From positions 1 to 63,059 of the forward strand of contig NZ_QKYN01000185.1 of assembly GCF_003258295.1 (NCBI RefSeq): a DNA stretch of 63,059 bases, written 5' to 3'. Positions 20,660 to 28,407 of the stretch are shown here, in pieces. Position numbers and translations under genes: made by a program. How positions within the stretch are numbered: the first letter of the stretch is position 1; the number at the start of each line of letters is the position of its first letter. The DNA is from Streptacidiphilus pinicola (GTDB lineage Bacteria > Actinomycetota > Actinomycetes > Streptomycetales > Streptomycetaceae). The notes under the pieces are model-generated. The model had not been told where the DNA came from, ran no database searches, and worked only from the letters and a program-made list of their open reading frames with translations.

Positions 20660-22849
20660 CTACCGGGAGGCGACCGTGACGCGACGGCTCACGGTGGCGG
20701 TGTGCCCGTGGCTGTCGGTGACGGTCAGGATGACGGTGTAGGAGCCGGGCTTGCGGAACGTCTTCGTCGGGGACGGCGCGGTGGATGCCGTGCCGTCGCC
20801 GAACTTCCACGACCACGCGGCGATGCTGCCGCCGCCCGTCTCCGCGGACCGGTCGGTCAGCCGGACCGTGAGGCCGGAGGCGGCCGCGGCGAAGGCCGCG
20901 TGCGGGGTGCCGGGCGTGAGGGTGCACGCCCCGGCGGCACAGCGGTCCAGCCAGGCGGCGAAGTCGGCGTCGTAGGAGGTGCCGAGGGAGTGGTACACCG
21001 CGTAGCCGCCGGTGTAGTCGCCGGAGCGGAAGTGGGCGAGCATGGCCTGGACGACGTCCGGGTGCCGCTCCACCATGTAGCGGACGGCCAGGTAGCCCCA
21101 CGGGTAGGTGCGGGTGACGTCGCTGTTGTCGTAGGTGTTCTGGAACAGCGTGCTCAGCGCGTAGGTGTGTTTGGCCGCCTCGGTCATCGCCTCGGTGTCG
21201 GTGACGCCGCGGTAGGTGTAGGAGACGTACTCCGCGACGCCTTCGATCCACCACACGTCGGGCACGGTGATCTCGTCCGCGAAGCTGCCCTTCATGTCGT
21301 AGCGGCCGTCGAGGGCGTGGGTGTACTCGTGGTTGAGGTTCCAGATCCGCGCCACGAAGCCGTCGTCGTGGATCTGGCGGTAGGTGATCGACAGGGGCTG
21401 GTTGGCCGGGTCCGCCGGGTCACCGGTCAGCGTGATGCCGCCGTTGTTCGTGTCGACGCCGAAGATGGGCCCGGCGTAGGTCTGGTAGTCCGACAGGCTC
21501 GCGAAGTTGACGATCCGCACGGACGCCTCGTGCTGGCCCGGAATCGGCCCGTGGTCCTTGACCAGCCGGTGGACGAACGGATCCTGGCCCTGGAGGCTGG
21601 CGCAGACGGCGGCGAGATCGGCCGCGGTCAGGTTCTGCGCCTCGACGGAGTGCGTGGCGTCGCAGGTGTGCCGGATCGGGAGGGCGGCCGCCCGCAGCCG
21701 CGCCGGCAGGTCGCAGACGCCGTAGGAGGAGCACCGGGCCTCGTCGTAGGCGGCGACCTGGCTCGCGACGCCGACCCACAGCGCCGCGGTCCGGCCGGTG
21801 ATCTTCGAGGCCGCGAGCAGGCCCTTGATCAGCGGCTGCACCTTGCCGTACAGGGCCGGGTGTTGGACGAAGCGGGCCGTCTCGATGCCCGCGTTGGAGT
21901 CCAGGAAGGCGTTCGGCCCGCCGAGCAGGTCCCGGTGCGCGAGCGCGAAGGCGTCGAGGGTGTCGACGATGCCCGGGTCGGCGGTGACGGCGCTGACGAA
22001 GTCCGGGTTCTGGTGGCCGCGGAACAGCGGCGTGAAGACGTCGTTGACGAGGTTGACCATGTACCAGGAGTGCTCGTACGCGTTGGTGTAGCCGCTCAGG
22101 ATCCGCTGGTAGGTGCGCAGGTAGCGGGCCTGCAGGCCGGCACTGTCGGTGAGGGTGACCACCTCCCCCGCGACCTGGCCGTTCGCGTCCGTGACGTCGG
22201 CGAGGTGCGGGCTCGCGACGAAGGCGTCGACGCCGCCCGCGACCGCGCCGGTGAGTGCCGCGTCGTAGCCCCCGACGTCCCCGGGGTCGTAGAACTGCAC
22301 GTAGTAGCCGGCCCGGAGGAACAGGGCGAGCTGCTCCAGGCCGGTCGAGTCGTCGCCGGAGTAGCTCGCCGACGCGGCGCGGAACGCGTCGGCCACGGCG
22401 CGCATCTGGCTCTCCCGGAACACCCCGGAGGCGTTCGGACCGGTGACGGCGAAGAGCGTGTTGACGCAGTCGGTGCTCGCCGACGTGACGAAGGAGACCA
22501 GCGCGGCTCCGGTCCGGCTGCTGAAGTCGGCCGGGGTGCACGAGGCGGAGGGGTGACCGGGCGCGGTCGCGGCGGCCGTCTGCGGGTCGGTCGTGGGAGC
22601 GGTGCTCGGGCTGTGCGGGGGTAGTTGACCGGCCGTCAGGCGCTGGGCCTGGACGACCGGTCGGTCGGCGGCGGCGCCGGTCCGACTACCGGTCGGCGGC
22701 AGCGACCGGCTGCTCTGCGCGGCGGCCGGCCGCACGTCGGCGGCATGGCCCGGCGTCACGGACAGGCCGACGAGGGCTGTGCTCGCGGCAACGAGCCCGG
22801 CCAGAAGGGGAGCGGGCAGGGATATGGACGTGCGGAAGCGCCGACGCAT
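20660..22849 (-). CDS. Secreted M9-family collagenase with C-terminal PKD domain
   Basis: The product is 729 aa. A signal peptide with an Arg-rich n-region leads into an N-terminal activator domain of the M9 type. The gluzincin zinc site H507-E-Y-T-H511 (LNHEYTHALDGRYD) follows, with the third ligand in the helix WWIEGVAEYVSY (about residue 533). The last ~85 residues are a PKD domain (SWKFGDGTAST) that helps bind or swell collagen fibrils. Start ATG 22849 follows GAGGAACGAGG. It is smaller than clostridial collagenases, with a single PKD and no further binding domain. Confidence 0.88.
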   Translation of the reverse strand: MRRRFRTSISLPAPLLAGLVAASTALVGLSVTPGHAADVRPAAAQSSRSLPPTGSRTGAAADRPVVQAQRLTAGQLPPHSPSTAPTTDPQTAAATAPGHPSASCTPADFSSRTGAALVSFVTSASTDCVNTLFAVTGPNASGVFRESQMRAVADAFRAASASYSGDDSTGLEQLALFLRAGYYVQFYDPGDVGGYDAALTGAVAGGVDAFVASPHLADVTDANGQVAGEVVTLTDSAGLQARYLRTYQRILSGYTNAYEHSWYMVNLVNDVFTPLFRGHQNPDFVSAVTADPGIVDTLDAFALAHRDLLGGPNAFLDSNAGIETARFVQHPALYGKVQPLIKGLLAASKITGRTAALWVGVASQVAAYDEARCSSYGVCDLPARLRAAALPIRHTCDATHSVEAQNLTAADLAAVCASLQGQDPFVHRLVKDHGPIPGQHEASVRIVNFASLSDYQTYAGPIFGVDTNNGGITLTGDPADPANQPLSITYRQIHDDGFVARIWNLNHEYTHALDGRYDMKGSFADEITVPDVWWIEGVAEYVSYTYRGVTDTEAMTEAAKHTYALSTLFQNTYDNSDVTRTYPWGYLAVRYMVERHPDVVQAMLAHFRSGDYTGGYAVYHSLGTSYDADFAAWLDRCAAGACTLTPGTPHAAFAAAASGLTVRLTDRSAETGGGSIAAWSWKFGDGTASTAPSPTKTFRKPGSYTVILTVTDSHGHTATVSRRVTVASR

Positions 22850-23907: not shown

Positions 23908-24013
23908 CAGCGCCTCCCCCTGATTTCCCGTTGATCGGGGGAACGCATGATAGCCAGCGGTCAGACCCGCCTCGCCGGACACGCGCGCCGATCCCGACCA
24001 CGGGCGGAGCCGG

Positions 24014-24204: not shown

Positions 24205-25356
24205 GTGATCCGGTTCGAGTCCGTGAGCAAGAAGTACCCCGACGGGACGCTCGCCGTCGACGAGCTCGACCTGGTCGCGCCCTCGGGCCGGATCACCGTG
24301 CTGGTCGGACCGTCGGGCTGCGGCAAGACCACCAGCTTGCGGATGATCAACCGGATGATCGAGCCGACCGACGGGCGGATCTGGCTGGACGACCGGGACA
24401 CCGCGAGCGTGCCCACGCACGAGCTGCGGCGCGGGATCGGCTATGTGATCCAGCACGCGGGGCTGTTCCCGCACCGCACCGTGGTGGACAACATCACGAC
24501 CGTGCCCGAGTTGCTGGGGCAGGACAAGAAGCGGGCGCGCGCCCGGGCGATGGAGCTGATGGAGCGGGTCGGGCTGCCGGCGCAGCTGGCCAAGCGGTAT
24601 CCGGCGCAGCTTTCCGGCGGACAGCAGCAGCGCGTGGGCGTCGCCCGCGCCCTGGCCGCCGACCCGCCGGTGATGCTGATGGACGAGCCGTTCAGCGCCG
24701 TCGACCCGGTGGTGCGGGCGCAGCTGCAGAACGAGTTCCTGCGGCTGCAGGGCGAGCTCGGCAAGACGATCGTGTTCGTCACCCACGACATCGACGAGGC
24801 CATCAAGCTGGGCGACCAGGTCGCCGTGCTGCGGGTCGGCGGACATCTGGCGCAGCTCGCGTCGCCCGCCGACCTGCTGGCGGCGCCCGCGGACACCTTC
24901 GTGGCCGAGTTCGTCGGACGCGACCGCGGCTACCGCGCGCTCGGCTTCGCCGGGGCCGGACGGCTGCCGCTGCACCACGAGCACTCCGTCGCGCTCGGGA
25001 GCGGGCTGGGCGAGGCCCGGGAGGCGGGGGTGGACGGCTGGGTGCTGGTGACCGACGCCGAGGAGCGTCCGCAGGGCTGGCTGCGCACCGACCGGCTCGC
25101 GGACGCGGCCAGCGGGGAGACGGTGGTCCAGGAGCAGCTCAACCTCGGCGGCACGCTCGCCTCCGAGAACGCCACGCTGCGCGAGGCGTTGGACTCCGCG
25201 CTCTCCTCCCCCAGCGGCCGCGGCGTCATCGTCGACGGCTCGGGCCTGCTGCTCGGCACGGTGACGGCCTCCGAGGTACTCGCGCGGATCGAGCAGCAGC
25301 GCGTCGCGGCTGACGGACCATCAGTGCGGCGCACCGGGGCGGGTGAGGCCTCCTGA
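24205..25356 (+). CDS. QAT-family (OpuC/ProV-like) osmoprotectant ABC ATPase
   Basis: The product is 383 aa. The GTG at 24205 is supported by AGGGGAG seven bases upstream. It has Walker A GPSGCGKTT, signature LSGGQQQRVGVARAL, Walker B VMLMDEPFSAVDP and the H-loop FVTHDID. The C-terminal ~130 residues resemble a CBS-type module (GWVLVTDAEERPQGWLRTD, later GRGVIVDGSGLLLGTV), which in this family senses ionic strength or nucleotides. It energises import of betaine, choline or related osmolytes with the three following genes. Confidence 0.88.
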   Translation: MIRFESVSKKYPDGTLAVDELDLVAPSGRITVLVGPSGCGKTTSLRMINRMIEPTDGRIWLDDRDTASVPTHELRRGIGYVIQHAGLFPHRTVVDNITTVPELLGQDKKRARARAMELMERVGLPAQLAKRYPAQLSGGQQQRVGVARALAADPPVMLMDEPFSAVDPVVRAQLQNEFLRLQGELGKTIVFVTHDIDEAIKLGDQVAVLRVGGHLAQLASPADLLAAPADTFVAEFVGRDRGYRALGFAGAGRLPLHHEHSVALGSGLGEAREAGVDGWVLVTDAEERPQGWLRTDRLADAASGETVVQEQLNLGGTLASENATLREALDSALSSPSGRGVIVDGSGLLLGTVTASEVLARIEQQRVAADGPSVRRTGAGEAS

Positions 25357-26102
25357 TGACCCCGCCCGGGCTCACCGCCCCTCCCGTTCTCCTCCACCAC
25401 GCCCCGACGGCCGGGCTCGCCGTCGACTCCTCGCCCGGAGGCATGTTCTCCTACTTCAGCGACCACCGTGACGAGGTGCTGAACTGGCTCGGCTACCACG
25501 CCTGGCTCTCCGCCGTCCCGGTGCTGGCGGGCCTGCTGATCGCGCTGCCGCTGGGCTGGCTGGCGCGCCGCTACCGCTGGACCTACCCGCCGCTGGTCAC
25601 CGCGGCCGGGGTCCTCTACACGATCCCCTCGATCGCGCTGTTCGTGGCCATGCCGGAGCTCATCGGCACGCAGATCCTCGACCCGATCAACGTGGCGGTC
25701 GCGCTCACCGTCTACACCGTCGCGCTGCTCGTCCGCGTCGTCGCGGACGGGCTCGCGGCGGTGCCGGAGGACGTCGCCCAGGCGGCGACGGCGATGGGGC
25801 TGACCCGCCGTCAACGGCTGCTCAAGGTGGAACTGCCGCTGGCCGTGCCGGTGATCGCCGCGGGCGTGCGGGTCGCGGTCGTCGCCAACGTCAGCCTGGT
25901 GGCCGTGGCGGGAACCATCGGCGTCCCCAACCTCGGCCAGCTGTTCACCACCGGCTTCCAGCTCTCGGTCGGCAATCCCTACTACCCGCCGATCACGCTC
26001 GGCATCGTGCTGTGCGTGCTGCTCGCGCTGGTCCTGGACCTGCTGGTGGTCGGCGCGACCCGGCTGGTGACGCCGTGGCGCAGGGCGGTGGGCGGCTCGT
26101 GA
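25356..26102 (+). CDS. Osmoprotectant ABC permease 1
   Basis: The product is 248 aa from ATG 25356, sharing one base with the ATPase stop (TGATG). The BPD inner-membrane domain has about five to six helices and the EAA-like loop VPEDVAQAATAMGLTRRQ that docks the ATPase. An internal ATG at 25443 (MFSYFSDHRDEV) matches the usual family start and could be the true one. It pairs with the next permease. Confidence 0.87.
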   Translation: MTPPGLTAPPVLLHHAPTAGLAVDSSPGGMFSYFSDHRDEVLNWLGYHAWLSAVPVLAGLLIALPLGWLARRYRWTYPPLVTAAGVLYTIPSIALFVAMPELIGTQILDPINVAVALTVYTVALLVRVVADGLAAVPEDVAQAATAMGLTRRQRLLKVELPLAVPVIAAGVRVAVVANVSLVAVAGTIGVPNLGQLFTTGFQLSVGNPYYPPITLGIVLCVLLALVLDLLVVGATRLVTPWRRAVGGS

Positions 26103-26885: not shown

Positions 26886-27848
26886 ATGAAGAAGGCACTC
26901 ACGTCGGCCCTCGTCGCCGCCTGCGCGACGGTCCTCGCGGCCTGCGGCAGCAGTGGCAGCAGCGGCTCGAACGGGCTGTCGGGCGGCAGCAGCGCCTCCG
27001 CCGGCGGGGGCGCGACCGTCGCCTCCAAGCTCGTCCTCGGCGGCTCGCCGGAGTTCAAGACCCGCACGGACGGCGTGCCCGGCCTCCAGCGCGTCTACGG
27101 CGTGACCTTCGGCTCCTACAAGACGCTCGACGCCGGCGGCCCGTTGACCATCAACGCGCTGAAGAACGGTCAGATCGACGCGGGCGACATCTTCACCACC
27201 GACCCGTCGATCCCCGCGAACGGCTTCGTGGTGCTGCAGGACCCGAAGAACCTCTACGCGGCGCAGAACGTGCTGCCGCTGATCAACAAGGCGAAGGCGA
27301 CCCCGGGCGTCAGCTCCACGCTCAACGCGGTCTCCGCCAAGCTGGACACCAACACCCTGGCCCAGCTGGACGTCCACGTCATCACCGACAAGCAGGACCC
27401 GGACGCGGTCGCCAAGGGCTGGCTCGCCTCGGTCGGTCTCAACAAGACCGGCACGGCGGCCCAGGGCGCCTCGATCAAGATCGGCTCCGCCAACTTCCAG
27501 GAGAGCGTGCTGCTCGCCGAGATCTACGCGGAGGCGCTGCGCGCCCAGGGCGCCAACATCACCACCCGACTGAACATCGGCAGCCGGGAGACCTACATCC
27601 CGGGCCTCAAGGACGGTTCGATCGACCTGATCCCCGAGTACAGCGGCGTGCTGCTGCAGTTCTTCGACCCGAAGGCCACCGCGGTCTCCTCGGCCGACGT
27701 CTACGCGGCGCTGCAGAAGGCCGTTCCGGCGCCGCTCACCGTGCTCGACCAGTCGAGCGCCGAGGACAAGGACGCGATCGTGGTCACCAAGACCACGGCG
27801 GACAAGTACCACCTGACCTCGATCGCCGACCTCGCCAAGAACGGCTGA
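26886..27848 (+). CDS. Circularly permuted osmoprotectant-binding lipoprotein (OpuAC/ProX-type)
   Basis: The product is 320 aa. ATG 26886 opens a lipoprotein signal (lipobox LAAC) and a Ser/Gly linker. Residues ~48-190 (LVLGGSPEFKTRTDGVPGL, later DAGDIFTTDPSI) correspond to the C-terminal half of OpuBC/OpuCC-type binding proteins. Residues ~196-320 (SIKIGSANFQESVLLAEIY, then DGSIDLIPEYSG and IADLAKNG) correspond to the N-terminal half. The native termini are joined through a short TGTAAQGA-type linker. Both lobes are complete, so the fold should be intact. It is the last gene of the transporter operon and ends at a strong terminator. Confidence 0.85.
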   Translation: MKKALTSALVAACATVLAACGSSGSSGSNGLSGGSSASAGGGATVASKLVLGGSPEFKTRTDGVPGLQRVYGVTFGSYKTLDAGGPLTINALKNGQIDAGDIFTTDPSIPANGFVVLQDPKNLYAAQNVLPLINKAKATPGVSSTLNAVSAKLDTNTLAQLDVHVITDKQDPDAVAKGWLASVGLNKTGTAAQGASIKIGSANFQESVLLAEIYAEALRAQGANITTRLNIGSRETYIPGLKDGSIDLIPEYSGVLLQFFDPKATAVSSADVYAALQKAVPAPLTVLDQSSAEDKDAIVVTKTTADKYHLTSIADLAKNG

Positions 27849-27869
27849 CCGCCTTCGCACGCGGCGTGC

Positions 27870-27902
27870 GTCCGGCCCGGCGCGGGGAGCGCCGGGCCGG
27901 AC
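27870..27902. terminator. Bidirectional terminator, binding lipoprotein / SRPBCC gene
   Basis: A perfect 14-bp stem: GTCCGGCCCGGCGC (27870-27883), loop GGGGA, GCGCCGGGCCGGAC (27889-27902), between convergent genes. Confidence 0.85.
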
Positions 27903-27915
27903 GGGTGACGCCCGC

Positions 27916-28407
27916 TCAGTGGAGCGTCGCCAGCAGCGCGTCCAACCGCTCGTAGCCCTCGCGCACGCCGCGGTCCATGCCGCTGGCGAGGATCATGTCG
28001 CGGGCGACGAGGGAGTCGACCAGGGAGAGCACGGTGACGCGGGTGCGTCCGTCGCCGAGGTCCTCGAAGGTGGCGGTGTCGAGGCTGACCCCGTCCGGGA
28101 AGCCCTCGTAGGTGAAGGTCTGCACGAGGCGGGCGTCGGGGCGCACCTCGTGGAAGGAGCCGTAGAAGGCGGCGACCTGCCGGCCGTCCCGGAACTGGCG
28201 GTAGCGGTAGTGCCCGCCGGTGCGCAGCTCCCAGGCGTCGAACTCGGTGGTGAGGTCCTTGGGGCCGAGCCACTGGCCCGCCAGCTCCTGCTCCGTCCAG
28301 GCACGGAAGACCTTGGCGACGGGCGCGTCGAACTCGCGCGTGATGCGGATGGTGGGCAGTTGGGGGTCGGCCTCGATGGCGGTCTCGTGGACCGGTCGGG
28401 TGGTCAT
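27916..28407 (-). CDS. SRPBCC (AHSA1-like) protein
   Basis: The product is 163 aa with the START/SRPBCC helix-grip fold of AHSA1-type proteins (TREFDAPVAKVFRAWTEQE, later QTFTYEGFPDGVSLDTATFE). Members bind hydrophobic ligands, and many are co-transcribed with an ArsR regulator, as here: the start overlaps the ArsR stop by four bases. Ligand and reaction are unknown. Confidence 0.85.
   Translation of the reverse strand: MTTRPVHETAIEADPQLPTIRITREFDAPVAKVFRAWTEQELAGQWLGPKDLTTEFDAWELRTGGHYRYRQFRDGRQVAAFYGSFHEVRPDARLVQTFTYEGFPDGVSLDTATFEDLGDGRTRVTVLSLVDSLVARDMILASGMDRGVREGYERLDALLATLH

What the first reader, a model, noticed from the sequence alone, without database searches (positions are those of the whole stretch)
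26886..27848. Circularly permuted osmolyte-binding lipoprotein
In OpuBC/OpuCC/ProX-like binding proteins the mature chain starts with the block seen here as SIKIGSANFQESVLLAEIY and ends with the block seen as PDAVAKGWLASVGL. In this gene the order is reversed. The C-terminal half comes first (residues ~48-190), then a short linker, then the N-terminal half (~196-320), and the chain ends at IADLAKNG, exactly where the usual protein would continue into KLVLGGSPEF. Both halves are complete and the signal peptide is normal, so a working permuted fold is likely. Domain-order swaps are known between distant betaine-binding families; a swap within this QAT-type subgroup may be a lineage trait or new.
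Basis: partly seen in the sequence, partly recalled or inferred. Interest (0 to 1): 0.75.

Follow-up and report, generated by a model that had tools for sequence, protein, structure and literature searches.

The report
Recurrently permuted ABC-importer binding protein
A membrane-tethered nutrient-binding protein of soil actinobacteria has its two halves in swapped order compared with its usual relatives, and the same kind of swap appears to have arisen several separate times in this protein family.

Summary
Confirmed. The 320-aa lipoprotein at 26886-27848 is an OpuAC-family (PF04069) binding protein in circularly permuted order: residues 46-181 match profile positions 112-256 of 257, and residues 196-319 match 2-111. 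It ends an ATPase-permease-permease-SBP gene set in a Streptacidiphilus genome. It is not an assembly fault: 5 of 14 genus genomes and other actinomycetes have the same order, with dN/dS 0.08-0.40. Its nearest canonical relative fetched has the usual order beside a 73%-identical ATPase.

Deep Actinomycetota carry the same cut, and another order carries a cut about 30 residues further on. On trees with the halves put in canonical order, all six pairings of four permuted groups are rejected as one clade, so at least four origins unless recombination swapped whole halves. Recombination is not excluded. One group is a single sequence.

Mapped pocket residues match canonical kin. "Osmolyte" is unverified. 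Both structure predictions were too poor to use. Permutation between distant betaine-binding families is published (PMC2395249); my searches found no report of this one.

The parts
26886..27848 (+). Circularly permuted PF04069 substrate-binding lipoprotein, 320 aa
26872..26877 (+). AGGAGA, ribosome-binding-like, 8 bases before the ATG
   Evidence: read from sequence
26886..26942 (+). Lipoprotein signal peptide (residues 1-19), lipobox LAA|C
   Evidence: read from translation; no signal-peptide program was run
26943..27020 (+). Lipid-anchor Cys20 and Ser/Gly-rich tether (residues 20-45)
   Evidence: read from translation
27021..27443 (+). Canonical C-terminal half, here first (residues 46-186; PF04069 112-256)
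27444..27470 (+). New linker joining old C terminus to old N terminus (residues 187-195, NKTGTAAQG-like)
   Evidence: comparison with canonical relatives
27471..27845 (+). Canonical N-terminal half, here last (residues 196-320; PF04069 2-111)
24205..25356 (+). ABC ATPase with C-terminal extension; GTG start chosen by eye (ORF opens at 23947)
   Evidence: PF00005; homologue beside 22 of 25 permuted loci
25356..26102 (+). Permease 1 (BPD_transp_1)
   Evidence: PF00528
26099..26851 (+). Permease 2 (BPD_transp_1); GTG start chosen by eye (longest ORF opens at 26012)
   Evidence: PF00528
27869..27903 (+). 15-bp inverted repeat with 5-base loop just after the stop codon; no T run, so not a classical intrinsic terminator
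   Evidence: z -3.13 for 27849-27925; one search reports no + strand terminator

Best explanation
The gene encodes the lipid-anchored substrate-binding protein of a complete ABC importer of the OpuB/OpuC/OsmF-ProX kind (PF04069, ProX-type). Its chain is circularly permuted: the order became [C-half][new linker][N-half], with a cut inside lobe 2, between that lobe's first strand-helix unit (...TSIADLAK) and its next strand (KLVLGG). By analogy with EgtUC, canonical chains run lobe1-lobe2-lobe1; this one would run lobe2-lobe1-lobe2, so lobe 1 is continuous, lobe 2 is split, two hinge crossings remain and the lipid anchor moves from lobe 1 to lobe 2. It should still clamp a ligand between the lobes and hand it to the permeases. 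The likely route is in-place tandem duplication of the SBP gene, fusion, and trimming of the first copy's front half (behind the signal peptide) and the second copy's back half. The same change occurred at least four times in Actinomycetota: at this cut in the window's group, in a deep group and in one further protein, and at a cut about 30 residues further on in another order. Shown: order, complementarity, conservation, gene neighbourhood, tree conflict with single origin. Inferred: lobe mapping, duplication route, transport function. Unknown: ligand.
For: Complementary Pfam halves; order against the PDB. Same order in independent assemblies. dN/dS 0.08-0.40. ATPase plus at least one permease beside 22 of 25 permuted loci, and one SBP per stretch held in 25 of 25; the other 3 lie near contig ends. 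Recurrence: A+B with L060 on 101 rows, dlnL 273, p 3e-40. All six pairings on 82 rows: A+B10 p 4.7e-7, A+L060 p 3.3e-4, A+type2 p 3.9e-52, B10+L060 p 3.4e-6, B10+type2 p 5e-5, L060+type2 p 1.6e-3. N-half and C-half trees each place A and B with different canonical kin. The ATPase tree puts A operons among canonical operons of their own lineage and B operons among theirs. Second cut point seen directly in protein ends. End overlap suits trimming of a duplication. Mapped pocket residues equal those of canonical kin.
Against: The same-cut groups break within a few residues of each other, and 24 of 24 type-1 starts have [VIL]A[SGA] at one register against 15 of 71 canonical rows scored (4 of 75 canonical rows not scored). 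That could mean shared ancestry of the junction with later replacement of the halves, rather than separate origins. B10 as one clade (p 0.23-0.45) and type 2 as one clade (p 0.13) are not rejected, so the count above four in the trees is not established. L060 is one long-branched sequence, and the groups were named after the tree was seen. No tandem-duplicate intermediate was found in the stretches held. Both structure models were poor. L037 is canonical yet falls inside or beside group A.
Confidence: 0.8

Rival explanations
1. Single origin plus recombination: the permuted gene arose once, spread by transfer, and its halves were later replaced piecewise by resident canonical genes, which leaves the junction but erases ancestry and mimics several origins.
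For: Near-identical cut position in A, B and L060 and the conserved [VIL]A[SGA] start.
Against: Both halves separately group with local canonical kin, so replacement would have to be almost complete in each lineage. Linkers between the halves differ by group. The type-2 cut cannot come from the same junction. The partner ATPases also follow the local lineage.
Confidence: 0.13
2. Assembly or sequencing artefact: a misjoin swapped two halves of a normal gene.
For: None found; the window's genome is a draft of 281 contigs.
Against: Same order at 80-90% identity in 5 other family genomes, including named strains of S. melanogenes, S. neutrinimicus and S. jiangxiensis, and at 38-67% in further lineages.
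Confidence: 0.005
3. Decaying or non-functional SBP, with transport served by another binding protein.
For: The genome has a canonical-order paralogue elsewhere, with ATPase and permease homologues on the same contig stretch.
Against: dN/dS well below 1, intact frame in the permuted homologues examined, mapped pocket residues as in canonical kin, and no second SBP in the permuted gene sets held.
Confidence: 0.03
4. Reverse polarity: the permuted order is ancestral and the canonical relatives reverted.
For: L037 is canonical but sits inside group A in the ATPase tree and beside or inside it in the SBP trees, so one local reversion is possible. Counts of changes do not give direction.
Against: Canonical order is shared with archaeal ProX, OsmF, EgtUC and OpuCC, to which canonical kin align end to end or nearly so, and with 75 of 101 distinct family members compared.
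Confidence: 0.03

Closest known systems
ProX of Archaeoglobus fulgidus, OpuBC/OpuCC, OsmF, EgtUC (PF04069, SBP cluster F-III per PMC9732360 for EgtUC)
   Same: Sequence family and, via canonical kin, full-length alignment; gene set ATPase-permease-permease-SBP.
   Different: Half order reversed; most recalled betaine-cage residues replaced in the window's group.
Circular permutation among glycine-betaine-binding proteins: B. subtilis OpuAC (2B4L), E. coli ProX (1R9L), A. fulgidus ProX (1SW1), reported with CPSARST (PMC2395249; passages and section 11 read)
   Same: Permutation within the same broad protein class.
   Different: Those pairs share under 24% identity and were found by structure. 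Here it lies between proteins 64-75% identical by half, and recurs. I could not test whether the cut equals that of OpuAC or E. coli ProX.
TpMglB-2 (Tp0684) of Treponema pallidum, circularly permuted sugar-binding lipoprotein (PMC4990184; passages and Discussion read)
   Same: Natural permuted, membrane-tethered SBP of an ABC importer; its authors suggest that anchoring may favour the new topology.
   Different: Cluster B sugar binder with a fourth hinge crossing; different family and cut; one family described.

Membership tests
PF04069 OpuAC substrate-binding domain | Profile match above gathering score | tested here: met
   173.5 bits against 21.2, in two stretches
PF04069 OpuAC substrate-binding domain | Canonical N-to-C order of the domain | tested here: not met
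   Residues 46-181 match positions 112-256 and 196-319 match 2-111
PF04069 OpuAC substrate-binding domain | Genetic link to PF00528 permease(s) and PF00005 ATPase | tested here: met
Glycine-betaine-binding OsmF (NCBIfam NF049931 equivalog) | Score at or above curated cut-off 400 | tested here: not met
   89.7 bits; canonical kin L037 scores 102, also below
ProX/OpuC-type quaternary-amine binders | Aromatic cage (A. fulgidus ProX Y63, Y111, Y190, Y214; positions recalled, not from a call) | tested here: not met
   Window group has Y, D, F, Q at these positions; two of four aromatic. Same in close canonical kin.
Lipoprotein | Signal peptide with lipobox cysteine | tested here: met
   LAAC at residues 17-20, by eye; no predictor run
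Circular permutant of a ProX-type SBP | Both halves present once, complementary, swapped, joined by a linker | tested here: met
Circular permutant of a ProX-type SBP | Same three-dimensional fold | tested here: inconclusive
   AlphaFold2 mean pLDDT 47.8 and 51.3 with 9-row alignments
Circular permutant of a ProX-type SBP | Ligand binding retained | not testable with these tools
   -

The most novel reading that the evidence does not exclude
One family of lipid-anchored binding proteins has been circularly permuted again and again in Actinomycetota (at least four times, at two cut sites that both lie in lobe 2), because moving the lipid anchor and tether from lobe 1 to lobe 2 is advantageous in tethered SBPs. 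It would be a natural replicated experiment on how anchor position and hinge connectivity shape ABC import.
Probability: 0.3. Interest if true: 0.78.

Novelty: new variant of a known kind. Interest (0 to 1): 0.6.

Why it matters
Natural circular permutation is usually inferred from pairs of remote structures. Here permuted and canonical versions are 64-75% identical by half, sit beside orthologous transporter genes, and seem to have arisen repeatedly, so the route (duplication, fusion, trimming) and the consequence (where the lipid anchor attaches, which lobe is split) can be tested directly with matched natural pairs. It also warns that halves-only profile hits in genome annotation may be intact permuted proteins rather than fragments.

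Tried and rejected
Structure prediction: two AlphaFold2 jobs, full length and mature chain, each on 9 rows of window and the search for related loci sequence; both too poor for a fold search, so no fold search was run. A viral-contig scan for more rows found no relative.

Assembly artefact: rejected. Chimera of two unlike paralogues: half trees place both halves of group A in the same broad clade; the nearest canonical clade differs somewhat between halves, with low resolution. Transfer of one permuted operon: the ATPase tree does not support it. Single origin: rejected as one clade, but recombination is not excluded. An earlier test of B+type2 (p 8.7e-11) included L060 and is superseded.

Plasmid collection: 395 of 72,556 records match P0001; the 30 listed all match in two or three pieces, so none listed is collinear with the permuted order; the other 365 were not seen.

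Rows dropped: near-copy and long-branched rows were left out of the 71-row and 82-row sets. L177 was not put in the tree because the contig cuts it. L170 was not put in either; it too is cut by a contig end.

Full report
WHAT IS THERE. The window is contig 128 of a draft genome. At 26886-27848 (+) lies a 320-aa lipoprotein. It is the last gene of a set of four: ABC ATPase (PF00005), two permeases (PF00528) and the binding protein (PF04069). A strong 15-bp hairpin follows the stop codon but has no T run.

THE PERMUTATION. Residues 46-181 match PF04069 positions 112-256 and residues 196-319 match positions 2-111, while the canonical relative L037 matches 2-256 in one stretch. PDB comparison gives the same order. 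A 9-residue linker joins the old C terminus to the old N terminus. The ends overlap a little: canonical chains read ...DLAPVASQLVLGG..., while permuted chains begin ...VASKLVLGG and end ...DLAKPAS or ...DLAKNG. That suits trimming of a tandem duplication, but no duplicated intermediate was found in the stretches held.

IT IS REAL AND KEPT. Full-length permuted homologues occur in 5 of 14 genus genomes, 6 of 101 family genomes, 3 of 391 order genomes at E up to 1e-50, 5 of 394 class genomes (9 matched at E up to 1e-45; 4 of the 9 are canonical) and 13 of 396 phylum genomes (14 matched; one canonical). The own genome is counted in each of these. dN/dS among six permuted genes is 0.08-0.40 in 15 pairs over 268 codons. 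Of 25 permuted loci with wider flanks, 22 have an ATPase and at least one permease beside the SBP; in one of them (L079) the ATPase lies on the other strand. The other three (L078, L081, L082) lie near contig ends. Each of the 25 stretches shows a single SBP.

CANONICAL NEIGHBOURS. L037, from a Pseudonocardiales MAG, has canonical order with 64% (C-half) and 75% (N-half) identity, beside a 73%-identical ATPase. G656, G462, Knoellia koreensis and others are also canonical. The own genome has a canonical paralogue (43% and 50%), with ATPase and permease homologues 4-6 kb away on the same stretch. At eight mapped positions, five permuted group-A proteins and five canonical kin share one signature, and the other eight group-A proteins differ from it only at the T66 position.

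RECURRENCE. Deep Actinomycetota carry the same cut: 6 of 24 genomes of one class and 4 of 27 of another, with canonical relatives nearby. In the order of G1162, 7 of 99 genomes carry a second cut, about 30 residues further on: the chain ends ...VYGLKF and starts ...F.PLD. One of the seven is truncated by its contig, so only its end is seen. I put the halves in canonical order and built trees. On 101 rows, the 24 same-cut permuted rows need 4 changes and all 26 permuted rows need 5. On 82 rows all permuted rows need 7, and starred branches alone force 4. One clade is rejected for every pairing of four groups: A (12 rows), B (10), L060 (1) and type 2 (6); the p values run from 3.9e-52 to 1.6e-3. 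B alone and type 2 alone are not rejected as clades. Group A is one side of a branch with weak bootstrap (56/92). N-half and C-half trees need 5 and 6 changes and keep A and B with different canonical kin. The ATPase tree (45 of 50 loci, quick method) agrees.

WHAT SPEAKS AGAINST SEVERAL ORIGINS. The type-1 cut is nearly the same in all lineages, and 24 of 24 starts carry [VIL]A[SGA] against 15 of 71 canonical rows scored. A shared junction followed by replacement of the halves would explain this too. L060 is one long-branched sequence. The groups were named after the first tree was seen.

HOW IT SHOULD WORK. EgtUC, a relative, has lobe 1 at residues 233-331 and 445-506 and lobe 2 at 341-432 (PMC9732360, passages). 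Aligning through L037, and assuming the PDB chain numbering offset, both cuts fall in lobe 2. So the window protein should run lobe2-lobe1-lobe2, with two hinge crossings kept and the lipid anchor on lobe 2. This is inference; the two predictions were too poor to check it. The ligand is unknown: the ProX aromatic cage is largely replaced (positions recalled), and the OsmF equivalog model is far below cut-off. Plasmid-borne canonical relatives lie beside histidine or aromatic amino acid ammonia-lyase genes, a weak hint towards a histidine-like ligand.

LITERATURE. Permutation between remote betaine-binding proteins was reported in 2008 (PMC2395249, passages and section 11). A permuted, tethered sugar-binding lipoprotein with an anchoring hypothesis was reported in 2016 (PMC4990184, passages and Discussion). 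The ten paper searches listed no report of a permuted ProX-type lipoprotein in Actinomycetota; the library lacks most subscription papers.

VERDICT. A real, conserved, circularly permuted member of a known family: a new variant of a known kind. Its apparent recurrence is the most interesting part.

Noticed in passing
L112, L113, L173-L177: Second permutation type with the cut about 30 residues downstream, 7 of 99 genomes in one order of Actinomycetota; one is contig-truncated.
   Followed up: yes
L037:5138-5932: Canonical SBP whose ATPase falls inside the permuted group's ATPase clade: local reversion, second origin in group A, or low resolution.
   Followed up: partly
L142; plasmid hits H1, H27, H29, H30: Canonical relatives in Neorhizobium, Sodalis and Klebsiella plasmids sit next to histidine or aromatic amino acid ammonia-lyase genes: a possible clue to the ligand.
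   Followed up: no
window 20660-22541 (-): ORF that looks by eye like a secreted collagenase-like metallopeptidase (HEYTHALDG) with a PKD-like tail.
   Followed up: no
window 27869-27903: 15-bp inverted repeat with 5-base loop right after the SBP stop codon, without a T run.
   Followed up: partly
type-1 permuted starts: [VIL]A[SGA] conserved in 24 of 24 permuted starts against 15 of 71 canonical rows at the same register; unexplained.
   Followed up: partly
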